Below are positions 6,299 through 29,698 of a stretch of DNA of 33,410 bases, piece by piece. Source of the DNA: Chromatiaceae bacterium (lineage in GTDB: Bacteria > Pseudomonadota > Gammaproteobacteria > Chromatiales > Chromatiaceae); contig JADZBU010000345.1 in the NCBI GenBank assembly GCA_020851955.1, positions 1 to 33,410 of the forward strand, in the 5' to 3' direction. Made by a program: the position numbers and the translations under genes. The notes under the pieces were generated by a model that made no database searches, was not told the origin of the DNA, and saw nothing but the letters and a program-made list of their open reading frames with translations. Positions within the stretch are counted from its first letter, which is position 1. Each line of letters starts with the position of its first letter.

Positions 6299-6606
6299 GT
6301 GATAACCCAATTGAGGTAGTCGGGCAGGCCGTGACGGATCGGGACCGCCATGATCTCCGGGAGGTCGTAGGGATGCAACTCGCGCAACCGCGCCGCCAGT
6401 TCCGGGAAACGGGCGGCGGCGGTTTTGATCAGCAGCAGGACCTCGGCGTCGCTGTGCCGCTGGCCCTGCCAAAGATAGATGGACCTCACGCCCGGCACGA
6501 GGTTCACGCAGGCCGCCAGCCCCTCGTCGACCAGGGTCGCGGCGAGGGACAGGGCGATGGCCTCGTCCGGGCAAGTGCAGAAGGCCAGAAGGACGTCGTC
6601 GGTCAT
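6265..6606 (-). CDS. cutA: Divalent cation tolerance protein CutA
   Basis: A 113-residue CutA1-family protein, a small trimeric cytoplasmic protein of ferredoxin-like fold linked to divalent metal tolerance in E. coli. Family hallmarks are FCTCPDEAIALSLA, the segment LAACVNLVPGVRSIYLWQG, the KTAAARFPEL helix and ELHPYDLPEIMAVPI. It begins with ATG at 6606 and overlaps the dsbD start by 34 bases, the conserved cutA-dsbD order of gammaproteobacteria. It is the first gene of the minus-strand block and is divergent from fxsA. Confidence 0.95.
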   Translation of the reverse strand: MTDDVLLAFCTCPDEAIALSLAATLVDEGLAACVNLVPGVRSIYLWQGQRHSDAEVLLLIKTAAARFPELAARLRELHPYDLPEIMAVPIRHGLPDYLNWVITCTTATSPTSA

Positions 6607-6769
6607 GCTGGGATACCCCGCGGGCTGGTGGGGACCCTGCGGCCGGTCCGCGCCTGATCAAACCAAGTTAGGCGCCGGCCGTGGGCCAAAAGATCGCGGG
6701 ATGTTACCCTTAATCCTGGCCGGCGTGGACCGGTATCCCGCTTCTTCCACCACCAAGGGGCAACCCAAC

Positions 6770-7413: not shown

Positions 7414-9415
<2,002 letters not shown>

Positions 9416-9446
9416 GCGCCCTGGGTCATCCGACCCAGCAAGACAA

Positions 9447-9472
9447 AGCCCCGCCTCGGCGGGGCTTTTTTT
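9447..9472 (+). terminator. Intrinsic terminator of the groE operon
   Basis: A perfect 9-bp stem (AGCCCCGCC / GGCGGGGCT, 9447-9455 and 9458-9466) with a very short loop, followed by seven T residues (9466-9472). A weaker hairpin CTGGGTC/GACCCAG (9421-9438) precedes it. It separates groEL from the convergent moaD. Confidence 0.93.
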
Positions 9473-9527
9473 ATGGACGCTAGCCGGGGGCCGGACTAGG
9501 GGTTGGCGCGTAAAAGGGAGGGGGGGG

Positions 9528-9797
9528 TCAGCCGCCGGTGACGGGTGGGAAGAAGGCGACTTCGTCGCCATCCTGGACCGGGGTGTCGAGGCGGGCCATG
9601 GCCTGATTGACCGCGGCGAGCAGGGGTTGGTCCCCGCCCAAGGCGTCGTTCCAGGGCTCGCCGCGCTGGCGCAGCAGCAGGAGCAGATCCGCAACGGTTA
9701 GGGGGCGGTCGGGGGTGGAGAAGTCAGGGCAGGGGATGGCCTCGGCGCCGGTGCCGACACGCTCCCGCAGGCTGGCAAAGTAGCGAAGCTGGATCAT
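9528..9797 (-). CDS. moaD: Molybdopterin synthase sulfur carrier subunit MoaD
   Basis: An 89-residue ubiquitin-like sulfur carrier. It starts [15 protein letters not shown] and ends FFPPVTGG; the terminal Gly-Gly is adenylated and thiocarboxylated so that MoaD can donate sulfur in molybdopterin synthesis. The start ATG at 9797 overlaps the moeA stop by four bases (ATGA), suggesting coupling. The partner large subunit moaE is not in the window. Length is normal (about 80-90). Confidence 0.93.
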   Translation of the reverse strand: MIQLRYFASLRERVGTGAEAIPCPDFSTPDRPLTVADLLLLLRQRGEPWNDALGGDQPLLAAVNQAMARLDTPVQDGDEVAFFPPVTGG

Positions 9798-11059
9798 GGG
9801 ATGATCTCGTTCAGGGGCAGGTACTGGACCCGGTCCCCGCGCCTGAGGGTCTGGTTGGCGGGGATGACCGCCAGCCCATCGGCCCAGGTGACGGAGCTGA
9901 GGACGCCGGAGGACTGACGGGGATAGAGGCGGACCTCGGGCTGGCCATCGGCGCCGGGTTCCAGGCGCGCGCGGGGGAACTCCAGGCGATCAGCGGCCTT
10001 GGGCCAGTCGAAGCCGGCCGGAAGGGTAAAAGCCTGGGGCTCCAGGTCGCCCACGCTACCCTGCATCCGGCGAATGAAGGGCCGGGCGAAGAGGCAGAAG
10101 GTGACGAAGAGGGACACGGGGTTCCCCGGGGTGCCGATGAAGGGCGTCCGCTCCGGGCCCAGATGCCCGAAGGCCAGCGGCTTACCGGGGCGGATGGCGA
10201 CCTTCCAGAGATCCAGGGTGCCGATCCGTTCCACCGCCAGCTTGACATGATCCTCCTCGCCCACGGAGACGCCGCCGCTCCCCATGACCAGGTCCGCCTG
10301 GCCGGCAGCCGCGGTCAGGGTAGCCATGGTCGCCTCCAGCTTGTCCGGAACCCGGCCCAGGTCCAGGGTCTCGCAACCCAGGGCCGCCAGCAGGCCGAGC
10401 AGAGTAAACCGGTTGGAGTTGTAGATCTGCCCGGGGCCCAGGGGCTGGCCGGGCATCACCAGTTCGTCGCCGCTGGCAAAGACCGCGACCTTGAGCCGCC
10501 GCCAGACGTTCAGCTCCGCCACGCCCACGGAAGCCGCCAGGCCCAGGTGCTGGGGGAGCAGGCGGGTCCCGGCGGCGATGATCTCGGCCCCGGCCTGGAT
10601 GTCCTCGCCGGCGCGCCGAATATTGGCGCCGGGCTTCACCGTCAGGGGTATGACGACCGCGTCCCCCTCGACGCGGCAGACCTCCTGCATCACGACCGTG
10701 TCGGCTCCCTCGGGCAGGGGAGCGCCCGTGAAGATGCGCGCTGCGGTGCCGGGCTCTAGCCGGGTGCCCGTGTTCCCGGCGGCGATGCGCTGGGAGACGC
10801 GCAGGCGGCCCTGGGCCGTCGCCAGGTCGCTGGCCCGCAGGGCATAACCGTCCATGGCGCTATTGTCCCAGCCGGGGACGCTGATCCGGCTCACCACGGG
10901 TGTCGCCAGGATGCGCCCCAGGGCCTCCAAGGAAGGGAGCTGTTCAGAATCCGGGACGGGAACGGCCTGGGCCAGGAGACGGGTCACGGCCTCCGCCATA
11001 CTCAGGAGGGCCTGGGACCCGGCCGATTCCGCGTGGCAACAATCAGGGGTGCTGGTCAT
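9794..11059 (-). CDS. moeA: Molybdopterin molybdenumtransferase MoeA
   Basis: A 421-residue enzyme that inserts molybdate into adenylated molybdopterin, the last step of molybdenum cofactor synthesis. Features seen are [15 protein letters not shown] at about 60-75, [23 protein letters not shown], the MoCF-domain motif [12 protein letters not shown], and [11 protein letters not shown]. The family is about 400-420 residues. It overlaps moaD by four bases and lies 27 bases after moaB, so moaB-moeA-moaD are probably one transcript. Confidence 0.96.
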
Positions 11060-14411: not shown

Positions 14412-15074
14412 TCACCCCGCCAGCGGCGCCATCAAGTCCGCTCCTTCCTCAGCCACCCGATTCACGCGCTGACTGACCGGCCAGCAGCGCAGCGCCTCCT
14501 CGGGTGCCTGCACCAGCAAGGCCTGGGCCGCCGCCACCGGGCCATCCAGCCAGGTCCCCCAGGCGCGCGGCGCCAGGATCAGCGGCATCCGCTCATGCAC
14601 CGGCGCCACCCGGGCATTGGCGGCGGTGGTCAGGATGCAGCAGGTCCGTAACAGGCCGCCATCCGGGGCCCGCCACCACTCCCAGAGCCCCCCCAGTGCC
14701 AGGACCTGGCCCTGGGGGTCGCTGAAGAAAAAGGGCTGCTTTGTCCGCCCCTGGGCCTGCCACTCGTAAAAGCCATTAACGGGGATCAGACAGCGGCGTT
14801 GCCGGAAGGCCTCCCGAAAGGCGCGCTGGGTCAGCACCGTCTCGCTCCGGGCATTGATGGGCCGCGGGCCGTCGGTCGGGTCCAGGCGCCAATGAGGCAC
14901 CAGCCCCCAGCGCAGCAAATGGAGCACCCGGGCCCCCGCCGGCGACCGCCGCACCACGGCGATGTCCGTGGCCGGGGCGATATTGGCGCGCGGCGCCAGG
15001 TCCGGGCATTCCGCCAGGCCAAAGACGCGGGTCAGTTCCTCGGGGCTACGGGCAAGGGCGAAGCGGCCACACAT
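14412..15074 (-). CDS. SRAP domain protein (YedK/HMCES), abasic-site crosslinking
   Basis: A 220-residue SRAP protein, which forms a covalent thiazolidine link with abasic sites in single-stranded DNA. The ATG at 15074 is chosen over the GTG at 15080 because the nucleophile Cys2 (MCGRFAL) must become N-terminal after Met removal. Other active-site elements are Asn75 and Arg77 (RPINARSET), Glu104 (NGFYEWQ) and His160 (PVHERMP). Length is typical (about 220-230). It is convergent in neither direction with a repair gene and seems to be a single gene. Confidence 0.95.
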   Translation of the reverse strand: MCGRFALARSPEELTRVFGLAECPDLAPRANIAPATDIAVVRRSPAGARVLHLLRWGLVPHWRLDPTDGPRPINARSETVLTQRAFREAFRQRRCLIPVNGFYEWQAQGRTKQPFFFSDPQGQVLALGGLWEWWRAPDGGLLRTCCILTTAANARVAPVHERMPLILAPRAWGTWLDGPVAAAQALLVQAPEEALRCWPVSQRVNRVAEEGADLMAPLAG

Positions 15075-15236
15075 GCCCACTAGTTTAGCCCGCTTCCGGC
15101 CTCACCCCACCCCCGGCAACGCCTTCCACCGGCTCGTATCAGCTGGCGACAACCGCTCCCGCCGCATCCGCCACGGCTGCCCCCCGGCCCCGCCCTTCGA
15201 ATTAACAAAACCCGCCAAGACTATTACCGCGCAGGA

Positions 15237-15255
15237 TACTCCCTTCAATGGAGTA
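15237..15255. promoter_or_regulatory. Inverted repeat, possible operator
   Basis: TACTCC - 7 bases - GGAGTA, a perfect 6-bp inverted repeat in the AT-richer part of the intergenic region, about 200 bases upstream of the subtilase start. It could be an operator or simply chance; no regulator is identifiable. Confidence 0.25.
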
Positions 15256-15308
15256 GATTTACTCATTGTTAAATCCTCTCCTATGGCTAGCATTCTTCTG
15301 CGAGTGCA

Positions 15309-15334
15309 CCCACGCGGCATCCGCGTGGGATTTT
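15309..15334 (+). terminator. Perfect 9-bp hairpin upstream of the subtilase
   Basis: CCCACGCGG - CAT - CCGCGTGGG followed by ATTTT. The stem is strong but the T run is short, and it lies about 125 bases before the subtilase ATG with no plus-strand gene ending nearby. It may act as a 5'-leader structure or attenuator rather than a terminator. Confidence 0.4.
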
Positions 15335-15456
15335 GGCGGTATTTAACCGAAAACCACATGATGTTCCGGAAGTTTTTTTTCATGGGATTGGCCTGCGATA
15401 AGGCTAGCGGCCGACCCCAAAGTGTTCCTAACTCCCACAACGAGGAGAGCAACAGT

Positions 15457-18400
15457 ATGAAATCGAAATGGCTGCATGGTGTGTTGAGCGCGGCGCTGGC
15501 GGCGGGCGTGGCGAGCCCGGTTTTCGGCCAGCGGGACGCGGCGATCCGGTTCGAGGGGCGAGCCGTACCCGCTGCGATCGCGGAGCTGAAACTGGAGGCA
15601 CCGGTGACCGCGACCGGAATTACCCCCGGTGTGCTCGACCGGAGCCTCGTCGGCGCCGTCGGTACCAACCGCGTGATCATTCGCCTGTCGGCCGATTCGG
15701 CGGCGATCGCCTTCGCCAAGGGTGCTGACACGGCCCAGGCCAAGGAGGCCGCCAAGGCCCAGCAGGAAGCGTTCCTTGGCAGCGTACGTGCCCTCGACCC
15801 AAAGGCGCGCCTGATCGGCCGGGCGCAGTCGGTGCTGAACGCCGTTTTCGTTGAAGTGGATGCCGCGGCCCTGCCGGAGCTCGCGAAGGATCCGCGCGTC
15901 ATGCGCATCGCGCCCGTAGCGGACTACCAGCTCCACTTGTCCGAAACGGTGCCTTACATTGGCGCCACGAAGGTGCAGTCGTTGGGCTACGACGGTAAGG
16001 GCATCAAGGTGGCGGTGCTCGACAGCGGCATCGACTACCTGCACGCCGCACTCGGTGGATCGGGCAACCCGGCGGATTTCGCGGGTAACGATCCGAGCAT
16101 CATCGAGCCGGGCAGCTTCCCCACGGCGAAGGTCGTCGCCGGCTATGACTTCACCGGCTCGGTGTGGCCGAACGGCCCCGAGACGCCCGATCCCGATCCG
16201 CTGGACGACGGCCCGGGAGGTGGCCACGGTACGCACGTTGCCCACATCATCGCCGGCACGGGCGGCGTTGCCCCGGGCGCGAGCCTCTATGCGGTGAAGG
16301 TGTGCTCGTCGGTGTCAACCTCGTGCTCCGGTATTGCGCTGATCCAGGGCATGGATTTCTCCGCGGACCCCAACGGCGACGGCAAGTTCAACGACCGCGT
16401 CGACATCATCAACATGTCGCTCGGTTCTTCCTATGGACAACCCTTCGACGACGACCTTTCCGCCGCGGTGGATGCGGCGACCTCGCTGGGTATCCTCACG
16501 GTGGCGTCGGCCGGAAACGGCTCCGACAAGCCTTTCGTCAACGGCACGCCGGCGGCCGCGAAGACGGCGCTTTCGGTCGCGCAGACCGCCATGCCCAGCG
16601 CCTTCCTGCCGCTGATGCAGATCACCGCGCCAACCGACATCGCCGGCAGTTTCCCGGCCGTGTTTCAGCCATGGTCGGCCCCGCTGACAGCGGGAATCGA
16701 GGCGCCCGTGCAATACGGCGACGGTGCCGGCGGCAATCAACTCGGCTGCGCGCCGTTCGGGACGGACGCGCTGGCGGGCAAGATCGCCCTCATCGATCGC
16801 GGTGCTTGCACCTTCACCCTGAAGATCAAAAACGTCAACGACGGCGGCGGGCTGATTGGCATCATCGGACTGGTCGCGCCCGGTGATCCGTTCGAAGGCG
16901 GCGACGGCGGCGATCGTCCCATCACGATTCCCGGCTACATGGTCAGCCAATGGGTGTCGGCCCGCCTGAAGAGCGCGCTGCCTAACACGGTCGTGCGTTT
17001 CGATCCGGCGGTCGGCTTTCCGCTGGCGGGCTCGATGGTCGGCAGTTCCTCGCGGGGCCCGCAGCACGAGGACACGATGCTGATCAAGCCGGAGATCGGC
17101 GCGCCGGGCGCATCCGTCTCGGCCATTGCCGGCACGGGCACCGAAGAGGGGCCCTTCGGCGGCACCTCGGGAGCGGCGCCGATGGTGGCCGGTTCGGCCG
17201 CGCTGATTTTCCAGGCCTATGGGGGCAGCAAGGCCACGGCAAAGGGCAGGCCGCCTGGCAAGGCGCTCGGTCTGGGCCTGACACCGCTGGAGGTCAAGGC
17301 GCTGCTGATGACCAACGGCGAGACCGACATCGTCAATGATGCCCTGACCGGAGCGCTCGCCCCCATAACCCGCATTGGCGGCGGCGAAGTGCGCGTCGAT
17401 CAGGCGCTAGCGGCGCCGGTGGTCGCCTGGGATCAGGACGTGCCGACCGGTGCGCTCGGCTTCGGCTTCGTCGATGTCGCTGACGGGACCGTCACCTTGA
17501 AGAAGACCGTCGAGATCCGCAACCTCGACAACAAGACTCACCGCTACACCGTGACGCCGACGTTCCGTTTCGCCGACGACGCCGCGAATGGGGCGGTGAC
17601 CGTGAGTGCGCCGGCGCGGGTCACGGTCAAGCCTGGTCAGGGCAGACCGACCACCTTCGAGGTGACCCTGACCATCGACGGCGCCAAGCTGCGCGGCAAC
17701 TTCATGAACTCGGGCAGTGGCGGCGCCGACCCCGCCACCTTGACCACCAACGAGTACGACGGCTACCTCGTTCTGGATGACGGCAAGCACCCGATCCATC
17801 TCGCCTGGCACGTGCTGCCGCGCCAGGCCGCCCGTGTCGAGCCGTCCACCACCGCCATCCTGCCGGGATCCTTCCCGCAGGTCATCGGGCTCAACAATAC
17901 CGGCGTCGGCAGGGCGCAGAACGATGCCTACTCGCTGTTGGCGGTCAGCGACAACCTGGCCGAAGGCGGTCGCGGCCAGCAGTCGCCGACTCCGGACATC
18001 CGCGCGGTGGGCATCAACACCTTCCCGGTGCCGGCGGGCTACTGCTCGGCGAATGAGTCCTTCATCTGGGCGTTCGCGGTCAACACCTGGGAGCGCCAGC
18101 AGCATTTGCTGCCCGTAAGCCACGAGATCTATCTCGACACGAATAAAGACGGGACCGACGACTACGTCGTTCTCAATCGCGATGTTTCGGGCCTGGGTAC
18201 GATCACCGACGGCCGTCAGGTGAGCTGGGTGGTGAAGCTGGCCACGGGCTTGGCCACTGCCTTCTTCTATGCCGAGCATTCGACCAGCACGGGCAACACG
18301 GTGCTCTACAGCTGCGGCGAGCAGCTTGGCCTGACGGGCACGGACATGCTGGGTACGCAGGTCGACATGGCCGTCCATGCCCAGGACTTCTACTACGGCG

Positions 18401-18642
18401 GTCCGGGGGATGTTGTCGAAGGGCTGACCGTCACCCCGCTTGGCGAGCGCTTCTACGGCGTACCGCGCGATGTGCCAGGCAACACGCAGGATGAGGCCGG
18501 CCTTGCCGTATACGACTCTGGACAGTTCCCGGGCAATTCGCCCGAGCTTGGCCTGATGTTGTTCACCAACGGCGATCGTGGTTCGGGCTTCCACGGTGGG
18601 GCAACCCCGGCGACGGAAGCCCTGTTGTTCATGGCGCCATAG
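15457..18642 (+). CDS. Large secreted subtilisin-like serine protease (S8 family)
   Basis: A 1061-residue exported protease. The ATG at 15457 has GAGGAG nine bases upstream and begins a signal peptide cleaved near VFGQ (residue 25). An inhibitor-like propeptide (about 70-160) precedes the catalytic domain: Asp189 (VAVLDSGID), His257 (GGHGTHVAHIIAG), oxyanion Asn354 (SAGNGSD) and Ser571 (GGTSGAAPMVAGSAALI). The serine motif is GTSGA rather than the usual GTSMA. A protease-associated (PA) domain is inserted at about 405-515 (GKIALIDRGACTF is its hallmark), the lactocepin/cucumisin-type layout. About 450 C-terminal residues contain beta-rich, possibly Fn3-like segments and no visible anchor. It is followed by its own terminator and probably is monocistronic. 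Confidence 0.92.
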   Translation: MKSKWLHGVLSAALAAGVASPVFGQRDAAIRFEGRAVPAAIAELKLEAPVTATGITPGVLDRSLVGAVGTNRVIIRLSADSAAIAFAKGADTAQAKEAAKAQQEAFLGSVRALDPKARLIGRAQSVLNAVFVEVDAAALPELAKDPRVMRIAPVADYQLHLSETVPYIGATKVQSLGYDGKGIKVAVLDSGIDYLHAALGGSGNPADFAGNDPSIIEPGSFPTAKVVAGYDFTGSVWPNGPETPDPDPLDDGPGGGHGTHVAHIIAGTGGVAPGASLYAVKVCSSVSTSCSGIALIQGMDFSADPNGDGKFNDRVDIINMSLGSSYGQPFDDDLSAAVDAATSLGILTVASAGNGSDKPFVNGTPAAAKTALSVAQTAMPSAFLPLMQITAPTDIAGSFPAVFQPWSAPLTAGIEAPVQYGDGAGGNQLGCAPFGTDALAGKIALIDRGACTFTLKIKNVNDGGGLIGIIGLVAPGDPFEGGDGGDRPITIPGYMVSQWVSARLKSALPNTVVRFDPAVGFPLAGSMVGSSSRGPQHEDTMLIKPEIGAPGASVSAIAGTGTEEGPFGGTSGAAPMVAGSAALIFQAYGGSKATAKGRPPGKALGLGLTPLEVKALLMTNGETDIVNDALTGALAPITRIGGGEVRVDQALAAPVVAWDQDVPTGALGFGFVDVADGTVTLKKTVEIRNLDNKTHRYTVTPTFRFADDAANGAVTVSAPARVTVKPGQGRPTTFEVTLTIDGAKLRGNFMNSGSGGADPATLTTNEYDGYLVLDDGKHPIHLAWHVLPRQAARVEPSTTAILPGSFPQVIGLNNTGVGRAQNDAYSLLAVSDNLAEGGRGQQSPTPDIRAVGINTFPVPAGYCSANESFIWAFAVNTWERQQHLLPVSHEIYLDTNKDGTDDYVVLNRDVSGLGTITDGRQVSWVVKLATGLATAFFYAEHSTSTGNTVLYSCGEQLGLTGTDMLGTQVDMAVHAQDFYYGGPGDVVEGLTVTPLGERFYGVPRDVPGNTQDEAGLAVYDSGQFPGNSPELGLMLFTNGDRGSGFHGGATPATEALLFMAP

Positions 18643-18721: not shown

Positions 18722-18752
18722 GCGAAGCCCCGGATCAGGGGCTTCGCTTTTT
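18722..18752 (+). terminator. Intrinsic terminator after the subtilase
   Basis: A perfect 10-bp stem GCGAAGCCCC (18722-18731) / GGGGCTTCGC (18738-18747) with a 6-base loop, followed by five T residues (18748-18752), 80 bases after the subtilase stop. Confidence 0.92.
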
Positions 18753-18811
18753 GATCGCTTGGTTCGCCGCGCCGGGTGTCAGCGCCCACTAAGTGACTGA
18801 AGGAAGCCACG

Positions 18812-18989
18812 GAATTTGGCTTTGTTTCATAATTTCGCCTTTTCAACGCCCACGCCGATGGCTGGCCAGGGCGGAAAAGTTGGCTTTGTTTGGTAGTTGG
18901 GACCTTTCAGCGCCCCTCGCTGGCTGGTCAGCAACGCAAGAATTGGCTTCGTTTCGTAGTTGGAAGGGCTCGCGCCCGCGTGGCTAGCC
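18812..18989. repeat. Three imperfect tandem copies of a ~64-bp unit
   Basis: The core TTGGCTTTGTTT (or TTGGCTTCGTTT) begins at 18816, 18880 and 18943, a period of 63-64 bases. Each copy continues with a TAGTT-like block, a CGCCC block and a TGGCTGGYCAG-like block; the third is slightly shorter. Copies differ at many positions, so it is not a recent duplication. No open frame uses it and no known repeat family is recognised. Confidence 0.7.
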
Positions 18990-19104: not shown

Positions 19105-20145
19105 TCAGAACATCGCCGTCGTGCGCTCCAGGAACCAGAACACCGCCAATGAGCCGATGGCGTAGCTGGGGAGCTGGCGAACCGCCGTCGGCAAGCGCCG
19201 CGGAACCCTGCGCAGGCCGGCCGCCGCAGTCAGGATGACCGCAACGCACAGGAGCTGTCCGACCTCGATGCCGAGGTTGAATGTGGCCAGTGCGAGCGGG
19301 ATCTCGTGTGCCGGCAGGCCGATCTCGGTCAGGGCGCCCGCGAAGCCGAGGCCATGCAGTAGACCGAACGCGAAGGCCATGGCCCACGGAAACCGCTTGA
19401 TCCAGGTCTCGGGCCCCTGCCCACGCCCGGCACGGGCCAACTCCACGGCGACAACGACGATGGTCAGCGCGATCAAGGCCTCGACGGGATGCGACGGCAC
19501 CTTGACCACACCCAGCACGGCGAGCGCGAGGGTGACGCTGTGCCCGGCGGTGAAGGCGGTGATGGTCCAGAACAACCGTCGATGGCCAGGCACGAGCAGA
19601 ACGAGTCCGAGCACGAACAGCAGGTGGTCGAGACCGCCGAGGATGTGCGCGAAGCCGAGGAGGAGATAGTCGCGCAGGATGTCGAGTCGACCGGCGCTTT
19701 CCGGAACGGTCAAGGTGGGTGCGTCGCCGCGCAGGACCGCCTGGATCAAGCGCCCGTCGGCCAGGTGGATGCGCAGCACGGCATCGGTGCGGCGCTCGCG
19801 CAGGCCGTTGACACCGATCACCGAGCCGACCAGGCCGGTATCGCCGCACCGGACGCTCCAGCGCAGCGTCAGGCGCGAGCCCGCTCGGCTCGCAACCGGC
19901 TCGGCCAGGGGTTGGCAGGCCGCGGGGAGGATGGCCCGCAGGGGCACCTCCGCGGTCCGGGACACCGGCAATCGCCAGAGCACGTCGAGCGTCCCCGTCG
20001 GCGACTCCCGAATCTCCAGTAGCGCCGGGTCGAGCGGATGGGCGACAAGGCTCGATGCCGCGCCACCCAGCCACAAGAGCAGTGTCCACAGGACGATCGC
20101 CCCTGCGGACATCCCCGGCACCTGGCGCCGGGGGGTCGCTGTCAC
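19105..20145 (-). CDS. HupE/UreJ-like membrane protein
   Basis: A 346-residue membrane protein of the HupE/UreJ_2 group. The N-terminal signal-anchor (about 12-35) is followed by a periplasmic domain (about 36-155, starting HPLDPALLEIRE). Then come about six transmembrane helices carrying the family histidine motifs GFAHILGGLDHLLFVLGL, TAGHSVTLALAVLG and FGLLHGLGFAGAL. HupE and UreJ are linked to nickel uptake for hydrogenase and urease; this longer group, with the extra soluble domain, has no proven substrate, and no hydrogenase or urease gene is nearby. Its start overlaps the stop of the prolyl-isomerase gene by four bases, so the two are coupled. Confidence 0.86.
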   Translation of the reverse strand: MTATPRRQVPGMSAGAIVLWTLLLWLGGAASSLVAHPLDPALLEIRESPTGTLDVLWRLPVSRTAEVPLRAILPAACQPLAEPVASRAGSRLTLRWSVRCGDTGLVGSVIGVNGLRERRTDAVLRIHLADGRLIQAVLRGDAPTLTVPESAGRLDILRDYLLLGFAHILGGLDHLLFVLGLVLLVPGHRRLFWTITAFTAGHSVTLALAVLGVVKVPSHPVEALIALTIVVVAVELARAGRGQGPETWIKRFPWAMAFAFGLLHGLGFAGALTEIGLPAHEIPLALATFNLGIEVGQLLCVAVILTAAAGLRRVPRRLPTAVRQLPSYAIGSLAVFWFLERTTAMF

Positions 20146-21152
20146 GGCTGCGCTGCCACGGCGACGCCGGGCGTGGAGAGGTCCTCGCGCCCCTCGACGC
20201 GAATCCTGTAGCGCTCCCGCAGTCGTACCAGACCCTGGGCCAGGCGTTGCGTCGCACGCTCCGTCCCGACGGCTTCCAGGAGTTGTTGTCTGATCGCGGC
20301 CACCTCTGGCAGGTGCGGCTCGCGCGTCTCCTCGACCAGGACCAGGTGCAGTCCGTAGGCCGATGCGATGGGGCCGGACCAGACACCGGGCTCAAGGGCG
20401 AAGACCTGCTCGGCGAAGGCCGTGCCGAACCGCGCGATGAGGCGGGGCCGGGAATAGGCTTGAAACCGCAGCCCGAGGAGGAACGGATCCGACAATGCGG
20501 CCGCGTCGGCCAGGGGCAGCGTGCGCGCTTGCGCGAGGGTTGCCCGCGCGGCTTCCTCGATCGACGCACCCCGGAGGTCTTCGTCCAGAAAGAGTTGCGA
20601 GAACGTCAGCTCGGCGGGCTGCAGGAAGCGCTCGCGATGGCGGTCGAGATAGTCCCACAGATCCGCGTCAGTCAGCGCGGGAGCCGCTGGGTCCTGCGCC
20701 AGGAGGATGCGCATCTTTTCGACCAGCAGGCGGCGGATGACGACGTCATCGTCGAGTCCAAGGGCACGCGCCTCGCTGACCAGCTCCTCGGGCGGGCGTC
20801 CGGGGCGATCGCCGAGCGCGCGCATCTTCTCGACGAGTCGGCGATGCACGCTGCCGTCCTGGAAGTCGAGTGCCAGCAGGCGGGCCTCGCGATAGAGCAT
20901 CTCCTCTTCGATGTTTTGCGCGATCAGGGCGGACATCTGCGCCGGGGTGGCGGGGATTCCCCAGCGCCGGACGAAGTCCTCCTTCATTACGCCGATCTGC
21001 TCCGCCGAGATGAGGATCGGCTCGCGCTGCACGGGTGGCCGTGGCAGCGCGGCCGGCGACCAGAGCTCTCTGGCGACGAAGAGGGTCACCCCGATCAGCA
21101 CGAAGTGGAGAACCGGGTGTCGGAGCCAAGGCCCGAGCCGGTGCCGGGTCAT
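20142..21152 (-). CDS. Membrane-anchored PpiC-type peptidylprolyl isomerase
   Basis: A 336-residue parvulin/SurA-like protein. The start at 21152 (MTRHRLGPWLRHPVLHF) precedes one transmembrane anchor (about 15-33). A SurA-N-like helical chaperone region (about 45-170) is followed by a PpiC rotamase-like domain (about 180-300), with the C-terminal signature FALEPGVWSGPIASAYGLHL. It would act on the periplasmic side, helping to fold exported proteins. It lies between the DUF3604 gene (79 bases upstream) and the HupE-like gene (four-base overlap), so it may serve the DUF3604 protein. Upstream frame extension to 21503 reads antisense to DUF3604 and is not used. Confidence 0.85.
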   Translation of the reverse strand: MTRHRLGPWLRHPVLHFVLIGVTLFVARELWSPAALPRPPVQREPILISAEQIGVMKEDFVRRWGIPATPAQMSALIAQNIEEEMLYREARLLALDFQDGSVHRRLVEKMRALGDRPGRPPEELVSEARALGLDDDVVIRRLLVEKMRILLAQDPAAPALTDADLWDYLDRHRERFLQPAELTFSQLFLDEDLRGASIEEAARATLAQARTLPLADAAALSDPFLLGLRFQAYSRPRLIARFGTAFAEQVFALEPGVWSGPIASAYGLHLVLVEETREPHLPEVAAIRQQLLEAVGTERATQRLAQGLVRLRERYRIRVEGREDLSTPGVAVAAQP

Positions 21153-21231
21153 GCGCCGATCGCCATGGGGCGACTCGACCCCATCCGCGGCGGGCCGCGG
21201 CCGGCGGTTGGCGCGGACCGATCGGCCGCGC

Positions 21232-23724
21232 TCACGGGGTGTACCAGATCGGCGAGGTCCAGGCGCGTTGCTGCACGGTCTGGGGCACGATGCCGCTGCA
21301 GCACTGGGTGTATTCGAATTCCTCGTAGCTGTCCGGCAGGGTGCAAACGCCGCCGCCACAGTCGGCGTCGCTGTTGCAGCCGCGCGCGTTCGCCGTTGGG
21401 GCTTGGCTGCGGCAGGTCCCCATGGGCTTGCCGCAATCGACGCCGCGCGCGTTGCAATAGAATTGGTTCCAGCGGCAGCTCGGGTTTTCGAGCACGCGCA
21501 CATAGTAGAAGGCGTGCCGGGCAGGGTCGAAATCGGGATCCGTCCAGAGTGTGCAGAGCATCTTCAAGCCGCCGCCGGTCGGTCGGCAGGTGCGCAGGTC
21601 GACCTTGGCCTGGTCGTCGGCCCTGCCCGCCACGTCGTACACCTGCTCGTGGGTCTGCCCAGCCGCGTCGACCCAGCCCTTGACGATCTGCGCGCGCTGC
21701 AAGGGTGTGCCAGGGTGGCCGGACCAGCCGGGGTCCATGAGTGCGCTGACCGCGAAGCTCGGGGCCTGCTGACCGCGGCCGGGAGGGCGCCGTCCACGTT
21801 TGAGTGTGCCGCCCATGGGCACGCCGCGAGCGTAACCGCGCGCAGCGAAATCGCCCACCTTGCAGATGTCGGCAGGCAGGTTGAAACCGCCGAAGACCCG
21901 CACGATCGGGCGGGTTCCGCTGGTGGCGTAGGTTTCGCGGTTCTTGAGGGCGGTGAAGATCGCGTCGCGCGAGTTTTCCTCGGCCCAGGCGACGGTCAGC
22001 CCGCCGGCGTTGGTTTCGAGGCCGAGAAAAAAGCGCTCGTTCAGGGCCTCGGCCGAGGTGGCGAAGCTCTGGATGCCGTGCGCGCCGCTCTTGGCGTACT
22101 GCTGGGCATCGGACTGGCCAGGCGTGCCGTTGTGGTTGTCGAGCCCGCCGACGAACCCGAGCTTGAAGGGATTCACCCCTTTTACCGCGGCGTACGCGAT
22201 GCCGTTCGCGAGCGTGTTGCGCACGTAGCTGCGCGGCGGAATGCTCTCGGTGGTCTGCATGGCATCGGTGAGGTAGCCGTCCGCCGCCCCGCCGAGCCGC
22301 GCCCAGCCTTCGTTCTCGAAGTCGCACAGCTCGTCAGGCGGATTCGTCCAGGCCATCCCGGTCTTGGCGTTGTAGCGACATTCCGACTGGCCCTTGATCT
22401 GGGTGAGCTCGACCAGGGGCTCCAATTGGTTGCGCAAGCGCGCCTCGGCCAGCCCGGCGGGCGTGTTCTCCGGGAGGATGAACATGCTGCCCCGGCTCAT
22501 GTTGGGATTATGCGGGATGGTCAGGACGTCACAGCGCGGCTTCGCCGGGTTCTTGATGCAGGCGTCCTTCAGACTCTGGAGCATCACCGCAGGGGAGGCC
22601 ACCGGCGAGCCCGGCGTCGAGGTGCAATCGGCGCCGAAGCCGCAGCCGAGCGGACTCTCGACGTTGCTGATCGGCCGGTCGATCACGTCGTTGTTGCGAA
22701 AGATGACGTTGCGGTGCAGGTTGTCCGCGCCCGAGTCACCGGTGAAGTTGGCGATGCAGGCGGCGCCGCTCGGACAATCCGCGGACGGTGACCACCCGGC
22801 GTCAGGCACGTCGGGGATGGCGTTGTCCTGCGATTGATCCCAGCAGGGCAGGGCTTCCGCGTCCGCGCAGCGGCCGTTCGCGGCCATCGCCGTGTATTCG
22901 TAGGCGATGAAGGACGTGAAGGTGCAGGAGGAGGTGCGGTCGTAGGCGGCCTCGGCATCGTTACGGATCTTGTCCCAAACCAGCTTGGCCTGACGATCGC
23001 AGAGCGCCCCGTTCGGACCGCAGAAGGCCGGGCGCATCGGGTTCTGGCTGACGTTTTCGAGTCCCGCGAAGATGCTGGCCGCGGCGCCTTGGCGCAGGCG
23101 CGAGATCTCATCGCGGGCGATGCCGCAGAGGGGGCTGTTGTAGCCCTTTGGTCGGCACAGGTTGTCCGACGCGCAGGTTTGTCCGGTGACGGCCGGATCG
23201 CAGTCCTGATCGCTCGCGCAGGTCTCGGTCGCCTCGAAGGTGCAGATATTGCTCTCGCCGAACTGCTCCGAGTGATCGGTGATGGCGGCGAAGTCGAGCG
23301 CGCGTCCCTCGGGGAACTGGATGGTCCGGGTGGCCATGAACTGACAGTGCTCACCGGGCATGCAGTAGGGGTGCTCGGTGACGTCGGTGCGCATACTGGG
23401 CGGCGGCGGGAGTTGGGATTGCTCGGCCGTGCGCGTGTCGGCCCAGGGCGGCAAGCCCACGCGACCGCCCTTTGCGTACCAGTAGGCATCCGCCGGGGTA
23501 TTGCGCGTGTCGAGCACCACGGCATCGAACGAGTAGGCCGTATGCAGGTGGGTTTCACCGAAGAACGGCTGCTTGGTCGGCTCGTAGCTCGCGCAACGCT
23601 TGCGGGCTTCGGTTCGCTCGAAGGGCGGAGTCAGATCCGGCGGGACGGTCTGGGCCGATCCGGTCGGCGCCATTGCGAACAGCAGTGTCCAAAGGACGTA
23701 GGTCTGGATCGACGGCGATCTCAT
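21232..23724 (-). CDS. Secreted DUF3604 protein (PHP-like)
   Basis: An 830-residue exported protein of the DUF3604 family. The ATG at 23724 has GAGGA about seven bases upstream and starts a signal peptide (about 1-24). The family resembles PHP-type metal phosphoesterases: FFGETHLHTAYSFDA at about 54-68 and FAAITDHSEQFGE at about 145-157 supply the His/Asp ligands, followed by TIPHNPNMSRG and GFVGGLDNHNGTPGQS. Many cysteines in the second quarter and the C-terminus suggest disulfides, fitting periplasmic or extracellular location. Enzymatic activity is unknown. Neighbouring PpiC and HupE-like genes on the same strand form an apparent operon. Confidence 0.88.
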   Translation of the reverse strand: MRSPSIQTYVLWTLLFAMAPTGSAQTVPPDLTPPFERTEARKRCASYEPTKQPFFGETHLHTAYSFDAVVLDTRNTPADAYWYAKGGRVGLPPWADTRTAEQSQLPPPPSMRTDVTEHPYCMPGEHCQFMATRTIQFPEGRALDFAAITDHSEQFGESNICTFEATETCASDQDCDPAVTGQTCASDNLCRPKGYNSPLCGIARDEISRLRQGAAASIFAGLENVSQNPMRPAFCGPNGALCDRQAKLVWDKIRNDAEAAYDRTSSCTFTSFIAYEYTAMAANGRCADAEALPCWDQSQDNAIPDVPDAGWSPSADCPSGAACIANFTGDSGADNLHRNVIFRNNDVIDRPISNVESPLGCGFGADCTSTPGSPVASPAVMLQSLKDACIKNPAKPRCDVLTIPHNPNMSRGSMFILPENTPAGLAEARLRNQLEPLVELTQIKGQSECRYNAKTGMAWTNPPDELCDFENEGWARLGGAADGYLTDAMQTTESIPPRSYVRNTLANGIAYAAVKGVNPFKLGFVGGLDNHNGTPGQSDAQQYAKSGAHGIQSFATSAEALNERFFLGLETNAGGLTVAWAEENSRDAIFTALKNRETYATSGTRPIVRVFGGFNLPADICKVGDFAARGYARGVPMGGTLKRGRRPPGRGQQAPSFAVSALMDPGWSGHPGTPLQRAQIVKGWVDAAGQTHEQVYDVAGRADDQAKVDLRTCRPTGGGLKMLCTLWTDPDFDPARHAFYYVRVLENPSCRWNQFYCNARGVDCGKPMGTCRSQAPTANARGCNSDADCGGGVCTLPDSYEEFEYTQCCSGIVPQTVQQRAWTSPIWYTP

Positions 23725-23814: not shown

Positions 23815-24966
23815 TTAGAAAAAGATGAAGGCACTGATGGTCATGACGCCCATGAGGCCGAGATAGGTCAAGGGAAATGCCCAGCGGCAGAATTGATCGA
23901 TGCGCCTGGCCCGTGTGGCATCCCCCCGCTGTTCGAGACCGCCCACCATCAGGTGAAATAGCAGGGTGATGGCCATGATAATCAGGCTGAGGTTCAGGTA
24001 GCCGTGTATCAGGGTGACGTAGGCGATGCGAGGCATACTGTCACCGATCACCATCAAGTAGGCGACGGCGGTGAGGATGCCGATAAAGGAGACGCTGATC
24101 CGATCCCCTATGGATGAACGATCCATCCAGAACACCGCGAAGGAGAGCAGGACGATCACCGCGAGCGGGAAGACGACGAGGCGCATCAGATAGAAAGGCA
24201 GACGGTTCACGTCAATGGTGACGACGTAGGTCGAGGCCACGCCACCCCGGCCAGCGTAAGGCGCCTCCCAGTCCTGGATAGCGCTGCTGATGCCATTGAG
24301 ATCCCACTGGGGTATGTGGATACGAGAGGCCGCGGCAGGCGGCGGCTCGGTGTCCGCCACCAGTTGTACCTCGTCCTTGTCGAAGCCCAGCACCTGGAAG
24401 GCCGCCTCGAGATGCTGGCGGTCGAAGGGAAAGCGCCTCATCACCAGCTTGGATTCCGCGATGGCGTTCAGGGTCTCGGTCAAGATGGAGGTGCCGTCCG
24501 GGCGGACGCGCAGCATGACGGCGCTCTTTTCGTAGAGGCCCGCTTGGTTGACCAGCATCACTTGTGGATACCAGCCCGGCGACGCCTCGTCGAACTGGAA
24601 AGCGCCCGTATAGATCTTTTCGGCCACCCCCTCCACGTCGGGATCGAAGGCCTGGCGAGGGTCGCGCCAACTCAGGGTCATCACCCCGGAAAATTCAAAA
24701 TTTTCCGCGCCGTCGTCAATTTCGTTGATCTGGTTGATGTCCAGCCTGGCCCGCACGATCAAGGGACCGGCAGACCTGGGTGGCGTCAGGGCGATGGGGT
24801 AAGTCGCTTGTGAAGAGCTGGCCGTGCTTGGTGCGCCCGGGGCGCCAGGCTCTGGGTCCAGGCTTGCCTTGCCCGTGCCCCAGGCCAGAACTCCGAGGAA
24901 CATCAGGATAGCTGCCATGAGCCGCCCGTAGCCAGAGGGGGGGTGGATGCCGTAGTCTCGGTTCAT
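23815..24966 (-). CDS. Pentameric ligand-gated ion channel homologue (Cys-loop type)
   Basis: A 383-residue prokaryotic member of the pentameric ligand-gated ion channel superfamily (GLIC/ELIC group). The ATG at 24966 is preferred over the TTG just before it; AGGA is about nine bases upstream. A signal segment (about 14-32) leads to an extracellular beta-sandwich domain (about 66-255). Its loop RRFPFDRQ (177-184) corresponds to the Cys-loop without the cysteines, as in other bacterial members. Four helices follow: M1 about 257-281, pore-lining M2 about 284-308, M3 about 315-341 and M4 about 362-383, ending with the protein. Ligand and ion selectivity cannot be inferred. It is 90 bases upstream of DUF3604 on the same strand, so cotranscription is possible. 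Confidence 0.9.
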   Translation of the reverse strand: MNRDYGIHPPSGYGRLMAAILMFLGVLAWGTGKASLDPEPGAPGAPSTASSSQATYPIALTPPRSAGPLIVRARLDINQINEIDDGAENFEFSGVMTLSWRDPRQAFDPDVEGVAEKIYTGAFQFDEASPGWYPQVMLVNQAGLYEKSAVMLRVRPDGTSILTETLNAIAESKLVMRRFPFDRQHLEAAFQVLGFDKDEVQLVADTEPPPAAASRIHIPQWDLNGISSAIQDWEAPYAGRGGVASTYVVTIDVNRLPFYLMRLVVFPLAVIVLLSFAVFWMDRSSIGDRISVSFIGILTAVAYLMVIGDSMPRIAYVTLIHGYLNLSLIIMAITLLFHLMVGGLEQRGDATRARRIDQFCRWAFPLTYLGLMGVMTISAFIFF

Positions 24967-25215
24967 CAATATCTTTCCTGATTATTAACATGCCTCGGCC
25001 AATTTTAGGGCTTTTCACCTCCCTCTTGCGTCTTATCATGGCCGAGAGATGGCGCTTGTGATCAATTGTTCACGGTCATGCTGGCAGGGCAGGCCGCGTT
25101 CCTCAACGGGGCTTCGACTTCGACCCCGGGAGGTTGCGCCGGGGTGCAACCGGGGCCTGAATCGCATCAGGCGGCATGACGAGGTGTCGGAACCCCACAA
25201 CTTACAGGCCAGCCG

Positions 25216-26370: not shown

Positions 26371-26494
26371 GATGCCGTCTTCTCGCGTCGGGTATTCTTC
26401 GAGTGCGGTATATTGACAGTCCCGCCGCTGCTTGACCAACGGCGTGGGGCCTGAGCGCGGTCCAAACCGCACCCCTAATCTGACCGGACGTGAC

Positions 26495-28897
26495 GTGACC
26501 CCCGACCAATTCATCACCAAATGGCGGAACGCCACCCTCAAGGAGCGCTCCGCCGCCCAGGAGCACTTCCTCGACCTGTGCCGCCTCCTGGACGAACCCA
26601 CACCCGCCGAGGCCGACCCCACCGGCGCTTGGTACTGCTTCGAGAAGGGTGCGGCCAAGGCCGGGGGCGGGGACGGCTGGGCGGACGTGTGGAAACGCGC
26701 CTGCTTCGGCTTTGAGTACAAGGGCAAGGGCAAAGACCTCAAGGATGCCTTCAAGCAGCTGCAGCTTTACACCCCCGCGCTGGAATACCCGCCGCTCCTG
26801 ATCGTCTCCGACCTGGACCGGATCGTCATCCATACCGCCTTCACCGGCACCGTGCCCGATGTCCATATCCTGCTCCTGGAGGATCTGCGCGACGCCAGCA
26901 AGCGCCGGCTGCTCAAGTGGGCCTTCAGCGATCCCGAGCGCCTGCGGCCGGGCCAGACCACGGCCGCCCTCACCGAGGCCGCCGCCGGGCGTTTCGGCGA
27001 TCTCGCGCAGCGCTGGCGTGCCCGTGGTCACGACCCCTGGGCGGTCGGTCACTTCTGCATCCGACTGCTGTTCTGCCTGTTCGCGGAGGATATCGAACTC
27101 CTGCCCCGCCAGATGTTCACCCGGCTGCTGGATGCGGGGCTCAAGGACCCGGCCAGCCTCACCGGGATGCTGCAAGACCTGTTCGGGGCGATGGCGAAGG
27201 GCGGGCGCGTCGGCTTCGATCCGGTTGACTGGTTCAACGGCGGGCTGTTCGATTCCGCTGACACCCTGCCGCTGGCGGTGGACGACATCAAGACCCTGCG
27301 GGCGCTGGCCGGGCTCGACTGGTCGGCCATCGAGCCGACCATCTTCGGTACCCTGTTCGAGCGCGGCCTGGACCCGGACAAACGCAGCCAGTTGGGTGCC
27401 CACTACACCGACCGCGGTTCGATCATGCGCCTGGTCGATCCGGTGGTGCTTGATCCGCTGCGGGATGCTTGGACGGCCAGGAAGACCGAGATCGCCGCCC
27501 TGATGGCGAAGGCCACCGCCGCCAAGTCCCTGTCCGCCCGCACCAAGGCCCGGAACGAGGCCCATGGGCTCCTCCAAGGCTTCCTGGCGCAGCTCGCCCA
27601 CTTCCGGGTCCTGGACCCTGCTTGCGGGTCCGGTAACTTCCTGCTGCTGGCCTTGCTGGGGCTCAAGGATCTGGAACACCGGGTCATCCTGGAGGCCGAG
27701 GCCCTGGGGCTGTCCAGGGCCTTCCCGATGGTTGGCCCGGAATGCGTGCTGGGGATCGAACTCAACCCCTACGCCGCCGAACTCGCCCGCGTCACCGTCT
27801 GGATCGGGGAGATCCAATGGATGCTGTCGCACGGCTTCTCGCTGTCGAAGAACCCGATTCTGAAGCCCTTGAACACCATCGAGCAGCGCGACGCCATCGT
27901 GAACCCCGACGGGACGGGACCGGAATGGCCGGAGGCGGATGTGATTGTGGGGAATCCGCCGTTCTTGGGTGGGAGCAAGAAGCGCGGCGCCCTGGGTGAC
28001 GCCTATTTCGAGGCGCTCGACCGACTCTATGCCGGGCGTGTTCCGGCCGGGGCCGACCTGGTAACCTATTGGTTTGAGAAATCGCGCGCCCAGATCGTTG
28101 CGGGTAAGGCGGGGGCGGCCGGCCTGGTCGCCACGAACTCGATCCGAGGTGGGGCAAACCGCACCGTGCTGGAGCGCATCCAGCGCACTGAAACCCGAAC
28201 CAAGCAGGGAGAATCGTATGACGACGATCACGTTCGACACGCTGCAACTGGTGGACAAGCTCAAGGCGGCGGGTTTTCCGCCCGAACAGGCGGAAGCGGT
28301 GATTCGGGCTATCGGCGAGGCCCAGGAGGAACTGGTCACCAAGACCTATCTGGACGTCACCTTGGAAAAAACACTGGCGCCGATTCGGACCGACCTGACC
28401 GTCCTAAAATGGATGATGGGGATGCTACTGGCGGGGGTAATGTCACTTCTTCTGAAGGGCTTGTTCTAGACGCGCCCCTGTGCATCTTCAACGCCTGGTC
28501 CGACGAGCCCTGGATCAATGAGGGCGCGGCGGTGCGGGTGTCGCTAGTGGCTTTCGGGCCGAAGCATGACAGGCAGGAGGGCATCAGGCTAGATGGTATG
28601 AAGGTGGCCAGTGTCCACGCCGACCTAACGGCCTCACCACTGGGTACCGAGAGCCAGGTGACGAACCTGACGGTGGCTGTTCCGCTCCGAGAAAATGCGG
28701 GAGCCAGTCTGAGGGGGACGACAAAAAATGGTCCTTTTGACATCTCCGGTGACCTTGCGCGCTCCTGGCTGACACGACCCAACCCCCACGGGCGTCCCAA
28801 CCCCGATGTGCTGAAGCCTTGGTGCAACGGCATGGATGTTACCCGGCGCCATTCGGATACCTGGATCATCGACTTCGGTGTGTCCATGCCCATGTAA
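26495..28897 (+). pseudogene. Class I DNA methyltransferase, main part, interrupted by an insertion and a TAA
   Basis: N-terminal and catalytic part of a large N6-adenine-type DNA methyltransferase. The GTG at 26495 gives the usual start (TPDQFITKWRNATLKERSA); a TTG at 26432 is possible. The SAM motif I VLDPACGSGNFL lies at about 372-383 and motif IV NPPF at 487-490; ATNSIRGGANRTVLERI follows. Here about 97 codons (28181-28471) interrupt the family pattern before it resumes at APLCIFNAWSDEPW. The insert contains a complete DUF1640 gene in another frame and reads as Gly/Asp-rich, non-family sequence in this frame. The frame then ends at a premature TAA (28895-28897) after FGVSMPM. It was probably a Type II-like modification enzyme or defence methyltransferase partnered with the divergent EVE-nuclease. 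Confidence 0.82.
28218..28469 (+). CDS. DUF1640 (CCDC90-like) small protein inserted in the methyltransferase gene
   Basis: An 83-residue protein starting MTTITFDTLQLVDKLKAAGF, with a predicted helical or coiled-coil N-terminal part (FPPEQAEAVIRAIGEAQEEL) and a C-terminal transmembrane helix (about 63-82), the layout of DUF1640/CCDC90 proteins. AGGGAG (28206-28211) lies six bases before the ATG, so it can be translated by itself. It sits wholly inside the methyltransferase gene, in a different frame on the same strand, and occupies almost exactly the segment that is foreign to the methyltransferase. Function is unknown in bacteria; mitochondrial CCDC90 relatives are inner-membrane proteins. 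Confidence 0.8.
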   Translation: MTTITFDTLQLVDKLKAAGFPPEQAEAVIRAIGEAQEELVTKTYLDVTLEKTLAPIRTDLTVLKWMMGMLLAGVMSLLLKGLF

Positions 28898-29698
28898 GAT
28901 GCGTCACTCTATGAGCTTCCGTTCGCACAGGTCCTAACGATGGTCAAACCAATGAGGGCCAGTAACAGACGTGATGCCTACCGCGAAAACTGGTGGCTTT
29001 TCGGTGAGAGCCGGCCCGGTTTCCGAGTCGCTATCAAGCCATTGGATCGTTATATCGCCACGGCAATGGTTGCCAAACACCGGATGTTCGTCTGGTTGCC
29101 AACTACCGTCATACCAGACCAGCAGGTCATCACCATCGTCCGCGCAGATGACACTACCTTTGGCATTCTGCACTCGCGGTTTCATGAATTATGGTCCTTA
29201 GGGCTATGCACCTGGTTGGGCAAGGGTAACGATCCCCGCTACACCCCAACCACCACCTTCGAGACCTTCCCCTTCCCCGCCGGCCTAACCCCCGACGACA
29301 CCGCCGGCCCCACCGAGGCCCTGGACTCCGGCGTCATCCTCCCGCCCGTAGCCCCCGATCGCCGCCCGGTCGCCCTCGCTATCGCCGAGGACGCGCACCG
29401 TCTGAACGCCCTGCGCGAAAACTGGCTGAACCCACCGGAGTGGGTAGAGCGGGTCCCCGAGGTCGTCCCCGGCTATCCGGACCGGATCATCCCCAAGCCC
29501 GAGCACGCGGCCGAGTTGAAGCAGCGGACCCTCACCAACCTCTACAACGCCCGGCCGGCGTGGCTCGACAACGCGCATCAGGCGCTGGATGCGGCGGTTG
29601 CGGCCGGTTACGGCTGGGAGGACTACGGGCCGGAGATGGCCGAAGAAGAGCTTCTGCGGCGGCTGCTGGCGCTAAACCTGGCGCGGGCCGCAGGCTGA
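28898..29698 (+). pseudogene. Class I DNA methyltransferase, C-terminal part after the in-frame stop
   Basis: The same reading frame resumes immediately after the TAA with DASLYELPFAQVLTMVKP and continues RASNRRDAYRENWWLFGES, the expected continuation of this methyltransferase family. It ends at 29698 after EEELLRRLLALNLARAAG. This part carries the C-terminal target-recognition/helical region, including FETFPFPAGL. An ATG at 28940 could in principle start a separate 252-residue protein, but no good ribosome binding site precedes it. Without the TAA and the insert the whole gene would encode about 970 residues, as expected for the family. Confidence 0.8.

What the first reader, a model, noticed from the sequence alone, without database searches (positions are those of the whole stretch)
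19105..23724. DUF3604 - PpiC - HupE/UreJ-like envelope module
A secreted, cysteine-rich PHP-like protein, a membrane-anchored prolyl isomerase and a His-rich membrane protein lie on one strand, with a four-base overlap between the last two. This suggests export and folding of the DUF3604 protein plus metal or small-molecule transport by the HupE-like protein. I recall these three families occurring together elsewhere, but the biochemical role is unknown.
Basis: partly seen in the sequence, partly recalled or inferred. Interest (0 to 1): 0.6.

Follow-up and report, generated by a model that had tools for sequence, protein, structure and literature searches.

The report
DUF3604 enzyme, foldase and metal-permease module
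Three neighbouring genes, for an exported metal-dependent hydrolase of unknown substrate, a periplasmic folding helper and a metal-capturing membrane permease, travel together across many proteobacteria as one undescribed unit, and this copy carries an unusual enzyme with 34 conserved cysteines.

Summary
On the minus strand, DUF3604 (21232-23724), a membrane-anchored SurA/PrsA-like PpiC foldase (20142-21152) and a HupE/UreJ_2 protein (19105-20145) lie in series; the last two overlap by 4 bases. The trio is a real unit: all three genes sit together in 52 of 86 DUF3604 loci examined in alpha- and gammaproteobacteria and on plasmids, including reordered, convergent and divergent layouts. The 4-base overlap recurs in 32 of 51 pairs. 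Against four Chromatiaceae relatives, nucleotide similarity stops at the module's edges. The module's HupE is its own subfamily: 20 of 22 gammaproteobacterial genomes that have it also have DUF3604. DUF3604 has an invariant PHP metal-ligand set, and its model matches a PHP phosphoesterase (3e38, Z 15.4). HupE has a ZrgA/PA4063-like periplasmic domain starting at a predicted N-terminal His, like the copper/nickel-binding 'anglerase' Ang-1-HupE described in 2025, but shorter. Best reading: an exported PHP metallohydrolase with its own foldase and metal-handling permease. The unit is well supported; metal direction and substrate are inferred. This copy belongs to a disulfide-rich clade: 34 cysteines, identical in five Chromatiaceae. 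No paper describing the module was found.

The parts
21232..23724 (-). DUF3604 protein, 830 aa, predicted Sec signal peptide (cleavage near residue 25, read by eye), PHP-type metallohydrolase core plus C-terminal beta domain
   Evidence: PF12228 E 1.4e-132; model core pLDDT >90, match to PHP protein 3e38 Z 15.4
23524..23550 (-). PHP motif I: H59, H61, S65, D67
   Evidence: invariant in 56 aligned DUF3604 proteins
23272..23277 (-). PHP motif II: D150-H151
   Evidence: invariant
22897..22899 (-). E276, candidate bridging carboxylate
   Evidence: invariant; role by analogy with PHP proteins
22510..22512 (-). H405, candidate metal ligand
   Evidence: invariant; role by analogy
22132..22140 (-). 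PHP motif IV: D529-N-H531
   Evidence: D529 and H531 invariant
21153..21231 (-). 79-bp DUF3604-PpiC intergenic gap, no terminator-like site on this strand
20142..21152 (-). PpiC/parvulin-type foldase, 336 aa, one N-terminal membrane anchor, SurA/PrsA-like
   Evidence: PF13145 E 1.5e-12; profile hits PEB4/HP0175/SurA/PrsA; H269 kept in 50 of 51, first active-site His is Gln here
20142..20145 (-). 4-base overlap of PpiC stop and HupE GTG start
   Evidence: same -4 overlap available in 32 of 51 PpiC-HupE pairs
19105..20145 (-). HupE/UreJ_2 permease, 346 aa (an internal ATG at 20112 is a possible alternative start)
   Evidence: PF13795 E 1.4e-47; model mean pLDDT 90.5
19705..20040 (-). Extracytoplasmic domain of HupE (residues 36-147), ZrgA/PA4063-like fold, starting at predicted N-terminal His36
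   Evidence: Z 10.6 to 8f1b and 10.0 to 7ahw; His in 39 and Asp in 10 of 50
19624..19647 (-). HX5DH motif of HupE (H167-H174) at the first transmembrane helix
   Evidence: H167, D173, H174 invariant in 50 sequences

Best explanation
The three genes are one functional unit for making and running an exported metal-dependent hydrolase. DUF3604 is secreted to the periplasm and folds into a PHP-type metal site that probably cleaves a phosphoester or related bond (substrate unknown). The PpiC protein, anchored in the inner membrane with its foldase domain outside, assists folding of the newly exported enzyme. HupE captures a transition metal on its periplasmic His1/beta-sandwich domain and hands it to its transmembrane part, keeping the metal needed by the DUF3604 enzymes available. 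Shown here: the unit, its conservation, the predicted domain folds and ligand patterns. Inferred: which metal, the direction of its movement, that PpiC's client is DUF3604, and the reaction.
For: All three genes together in 52 of 86 DUF3604 loci, with varied layouts: the usual DUF-PPI-HUP, PPI-HUP-DUF (L009, L066, L072), convergent (L025, L069), divergent (L012, L017); and split loci in G340, G244, G138. Nucleotide similarity to four Chromatiaceae relatives is confined to the module. Module-type HupE is a separate subfamily (A5 scores of 298 bits or more, full length, apart from one linked case at 249; all others 228 or less); 20 of 22 gammaproteobacterial genomes with it have DUF3604, Fisher p 4e-24; all 21 genomes of at least 90% completeness tested have it. 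Tree distances agree (Mantel r 0.58-0.77, 0 of 2000 permutations). One PpiC-HupE pair coexists with up to six DUF3604 copies (G161 6:1, G153 5:1), as a shared helper would. PHP ligands invariant; fold match to 3e38. HupE's outer domain matches zinc-binding ZrgA and PA4063, and Ang-1-HupE proteins with the same layout bind Cu and Ni at Kd 74 and 220 nM (PMC12537917).
Against: No activity, metal content or interaction has been measured. Characterised HupE proteins import nickel into the cytoplasm, which does not by itself put metal into a periplasmic enzyme. Some genomes have DUF3604 without the pair (G003, G011, G505). The first parvulin active-site His is Gln in 24 of 51 PpiC proteins including this one, so isomerase activity may be weak. 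Mantel agreement partly reflects shared species history.
Confidence: 0.45

Rival explanations
1. Scavenging unit: DUF3604 hydrolyses an external compound or metal complex in the periplasm, and HupE imports what is released (a metal ion or small product). PpiC helps fold the enzyme or the permease.
For: HupE relatives are importers; the Ang-1 authors propose metal capture and uptake (PMC12537917). Sulfatase, TonB-receptor and DUF1254/DUF1214 genes recur near DUF3604 in several loci, which fits nutrient scavenging. Copies on conjugative plasmids fit an accessory catabolic trait.
Against: DUF3604 paralogues multiply while the permease stays at one or two copies, which fits a shared supply role better than a product-specific importer, though one common product would also fit.
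Confidence: 0.3
2. PpiC is the dedicated partner of HupE (folding its periplasmic metal domain), and the pair is a metal-uptake device of which DUF3604 is merely a user.
For: PpiC and HupE stay together, with overlapping genes, even where DUF3604 is elsewhere (L114, L118, L122).
Against: At L021/L094 (G138) PpiC stays with DUF3604 and HupE is on another contig. Generic HupE proteins with similar periplasmic domains have no such PpiC neighbour.
Confidence: 0.15
3. No functional link: the genes are neighbours only by common descent or chance.
For: Within Chromatiaceae the same order could be inherited.
Against: Linkage persists through changed order and orientation, in two classes and on plasmids, with a strong genome-wide co-occurrence, and flanks differ in every relative.
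Confidence: 0.02

Closest known systems
Ang-1-HupE/UreJ-2 'anglerase' permease (Franco Cairo et al. 2025, PMC12537917, PDB 9GCE)
   Same: Signal peptide, predicted N-terminal His, beta-sandwich outer domain closest to 8F1B, PF13795 membrane part; profile alignment over the full length (hhalign E 6e-56) including the AHExRPA start
   Different: Outer domain about 115 instead of about 175 residues; no sequence match to 9GCE even at E 10, whereas a generic relative hits it at 1e-8; His1 is Asp in 10 of 50; tied to PpiC and DUF3604, which that paper's main text does not mention
BVU_3505 (PDB 3e38), two-domain PHP-like phosphoesterase of Bacteroides
   Same: PHP core plus C-terminal beta domain; Z 15.4 over 235 residues
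   Different: 17% identity; DUF3604 has large insertions and, here, 34 cysteines; 3e38 itself is named only as a predicted phosphoesterase
PEB4/HP0175, SurA and PrsA periplasmic foldases
   Same: Parvulin domain and flanking helical region (profile E 2.5e-13 to PEB4)
   Different: Membrane-anchored, smaller than SurA, WxGPxxS signature, Gln at the first active-site His in about half; genetically tied to one enzyme family
ZrgA / PA4063 periplasmic zinc-binding proteins (PF10986)
   Same: Fold of the HupE outer domain (Z 10.6 and 10.0)
   Different: No sequence-profile support (hhalign probability 5.5); no His-rich loop

Membership tests
DUF3604 (PF12228) | Match to the curated profile above its cut-off | tested here: met
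   443.5 bits against a cut-off of 20.4
PHP superfamily of metal-dependent hydrolases | Conserved metal ligands HxH, DH, Glu, His, DxH | tested here: met
   H59, H61, D67, D150, H151, E276, H405, D529, H531 invariant in 56 sequences
PHP superfamily of metal-dependent hydrolases | PHP fold | tested here: met
   3e38 Z 15.4, next row 3.9; Foldseek E 1.3e-3, probability 0.99; overall mean pLDDT only 76
PHP superfamily of metal-dependent hydrolases | Phosphoesterase activity | not testable with these tools
   needs purified protein
PpiC-type (parvulin) peptidyl-prolyl isomerase | Rotamase domain profile | tested here: met
   PF13145 48.8 bits, cut-off 27; PF00639 19.8 bits, under its cut-off 21.7
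PpiC-type (parvulin) peptidyl-prolyl isomerase | Two active-site histidines | tested here: inconclusive
   H269 kept in 50 of 51; the other position is Gln here and in 24 of 51
HupE/UreJ_2 (PF13795) metal permease | Curated profile and HX5DH motif | tested here: met
   161.7 bits, cut-off 24.5; H167, D173, H174 invariant
HupE/UreJ_2 (PF13795) metal permease | Transports nickel or cobalt | not testable with these tools
   needs uptake assays
Ang-1 anglerase | His directly after the signal peptide | tested here: met
   LVA|H36 here by inspection, no cleavage predictor run; His in 39 and Asp in 10 of 50 module HupE
Ang-1 anglerase | About 175-residue outer domain with helical insert, sequence-related to 9GCE | tested here: not met
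   about 115 residues; no 9GCE hit at E 10
ZrgA (PF10986) | Sequence-profile relationship | tested here: not met
   hhalign probability 5.5; the fold alone is similar

The most novel reading that the evidence does not exclude
A dedicated maturation system for an extracytoplasmic metalloenzyme family: a new short anglerase-type HupE handles metal on the periplasmic side in concert with a membrane-tethered foldase, so that DUF3604 enzymes are folded and metal-loaded at the membrane as they emerge from Sec. That would be a periplasmic counterpart of the cytoplasmic nickel-enzyme accessory systems.
Probability: 0.2. Interest if true: 0.75.

Novelty: new variant of a known kind. Interest (0 to 1): 0.5.

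Why it matters
DUF3604 is a large family with no known function, named in only one of 5.39 million searched papers. Its fixed partners turn an anonymous family into a testable hypothesis: an exported PHP metallohydrolase with its own foldase and metal-capturing permease. The link also gives the newly described anglerase idea a likely client enzyme, and the 34-cysteine clade offers a natural test case for folding of a heavily disulfide-bonded bacterial enzyme.

Tried and rejected
The pentameric ligand-gated channel just upstream (23815-24969) was tested as a fourth member: it occurs in no other DUF3604 locus fetched by then except for one distant relative 3 kb away (L059), so it was rejected. 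Sulfatase, DUF1254/DUF1214, TonB-receptor and oxidoreductase genes recur near DUF3604 but in at most 7 of 79 loci for any of these clusters, too few to belong. ABC-transporter ATPase and sensor-protein clusters reach 9-11 loci but are broad families that join by domain similarity. Generic HupE_UreJ_2 proteins were tested as equivalents and set aside: 19 of 20 such loci lack the PpiC gene, and the exception is a module-type HupE. No solved relative of DUF3604 by sequence and none of the module HupE. The weak match of the HupE membrane part to the zinc transporter BbZIP (Z 6.6) is below what helical bundles reach by chance and was not used. Literature searches for the module returned nothing.

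Full report
OBSERVATION. DUF3604 is 21232-23724, PpiC 20142-21152 and HupE 19105-20145, all on the minus strand; the first gap is 79 bp, the second junction is a 4-base overlap. The PpiC start must be near 21152, because the longer ORF runs inside DUF3604. No minus-strand terminator-like site lies between the genes. The window is a whole contig of a draft genome; the nearest named relatives found are Thiocapsa and Thiobaca, Chromatiaceae.

THE UNIT. DUF3604 is patchy: 29 of 369 genomes in the class sample, 28 of 398 in the phylum sample and 10 of 55 in the relatives sample; the three other genomes of the same genus lack it. In the neighbourhoods fetched all three genes lie together in 52 of 86 DUF3604 loci; many of the rest are cut by contig ends. 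Order and direction vary (DUF-PPI-HUP, PPI-HUP-DUF, convergent, divergent, split) while the linkage persists. Named examples with the usual order include Sinorhizobium meliloti, S. medicae, Rhizobium leguminosarum (one extra gene between), Ensifer and Pseudoalteromonas plasmids; solitary DUF3604 genes also exist. The PpiC-HupE overlap of 4 bases is available in 32 of 51 pairs. Compared with four Chromatiaceae relatives, DNA similarity covers the three genes (plus up to 48 bases upstream) and stops there.

A SPECIFIC HupE. Generic HupE_UreJ_2 proteins are common (101 of 369 genomes), but the module type separates in score: 298 bits or more over most of the profile, apart from one linked but more divergent case at 249, against 228 or less for all others. 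Of 22 genomes with it, 20 have DUF3604 (Fisher p about 4e-24). The two others, G264 and G361, have the PpiC-HupE pair; in G361 the contig ends inside PpiC. G544 keeps the pair beside a DUF3604 remnant, and G012 has one ORF that joins the start of DUF3604 to the end of HupE, as if the middle were deleted. In one search, 21 of 22 DUF3604 genomes had module HupE, the exception being 72% complete. DUF3604 without the pair also exists in nearly complete genomes (G003, G011, G505), so the dependence is mainly of the pair on DUF3604. Copy numbers point the same way: six DUF3604 genes to one HupE in G161, five to one in G153, three to one in G556.

DUF3604. Among 56 sequences H59, H61, S65, D67, D150, H151, E276, H405, D529 and H531 are invariant, the pattern of a PHP metal site (assignment by established PHP knowledge). 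The model has a confident core (blocks above 90) and weak Cys-rich insertions (mean 76). The only clear solved match is the PHP-like protein 3e38, Z 15.4, next row 3.9. Reaction and substrate are unknown.

CYSTEINES. This protein has 34 Cys, at 34 positions identical in five Chromatiaceae orthologues; most Cys-poor DUF3604 proteins have 0-2, a few up to 5. It sits in a clade with other Cys-rich gammaproteobacterial members (16-27 Cys) that share 12-18 of those positions; a third, distant group has 20-23 Cys but shares only one. An even number, all after the signal peptide, suggests disulfides (inference). The pair occurs beside Cys-poor and Cys-rich versions alike, so disulfides are not its reason.

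PpiC. The profile hits PEB4, HP0175, SurA and PrsA. One parvulin His (269) is kept in 50 of 51; the other position is His in 26 and Gln in 24, Gln here. It may act more as chaperone than isomerase.

HupE. The model (mean pLDDT 90.5) has an N-terminal hydrophobic helix read as a signal peptide, an outer beta-sandwich (36-147) and a membrane bundle. The outer domain matches ZrgA (Z 10.6) and PA4063 (Z 10.0), with other rows at 6.8 and below apart from one membrane-part match at 9.3. The predicted mature N-terminus is His in 39 and Asp in 10 of 50. A 2025 paper describes Ang-1-HupE proteins with His1, the same nearest fold (8F1B) and measured Cu (74 nM) and Ni (220 nM) binding (PMC12537917). A generic HupE fetched here is of that type (9gce E 1.4e-8). 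The module HupE is related along its length, including the AHExRPA start, but has a shorter domain without detectable sequence match to 9GCE. It is best called a short, anglerase-like variant.

MECHANISM. Shown: the conserved unit, the PHP ligand set and predicted fold, the metal-type outer domain and HX5DH motif. Inferred: PpiC assists DUF3604; HupE keeps a metal available for it, or imports metal or product that it releases. I favour supply because one pair coexists with many DUF3604 paralogues, but only moderately, since HupE relatives are importers.

LIMITS. Many genomes are draft; Fisher and Mantel tests do not fully correct for kinship; signal peptides were read by eye; no complex was modelled; no activity can be tested here.

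Noticed in passing
23815-24969 (-): A prokaryotic pentameric ligand-gated ion channel gene (PF02931/PF02932) lies 90 bp upstream of DUF3604 on the same strand; it is absent from the Thiocapsa, Thiobaca and other module loci, with one distant relative near DUF3604 in L059.
   Followed up: partly
L022 (G012:C2) 9040-10038: One open frame joins the first part of DUF3604 to the last part of HupE, with PpiC missing: apparent in-frame deletion relic of the module in a genome rated 100% complete.
   Followed up: partly
26432-29698 (+): An MmeI-like restriction-modification protein is split over two ORFs (26432-28897 methylase part, 28940-29698 target-recognition part).
   Followed up: no
3899-6661 (-): A DsbD thiol:disulfide interchange protein gene is on the same contig, of possible relevance to a 34-Cys exported protein; DNA similarity to the four related module loci does not extend to it.
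   Followed up: partly
14962-18642 (+): Large secreted subtilase with a PA domain; the full-length ORF is probably too long, with a signal-peptide-like start (MKSKWLHG...) inside it, and a strong hairpin plus T-run downstream at 18722-18747.
   Followed up: no
18800-18980: Degenerate repeats of a motif like 'TTGGCTTTGTTT..TAGTTGG' lie just downstream of HupE between the convergent genes (read by eye).
   Followed up: no
L012-L017: A very divergent DUF3604 group (about 745-782 aa ORFs in L012-L017, 20-23 Cys sharing only one Cys position with the window) in other gammaproteobacteria, divergently arranged with PpiC-HupE in L012 and L017.
   Followed up: partly
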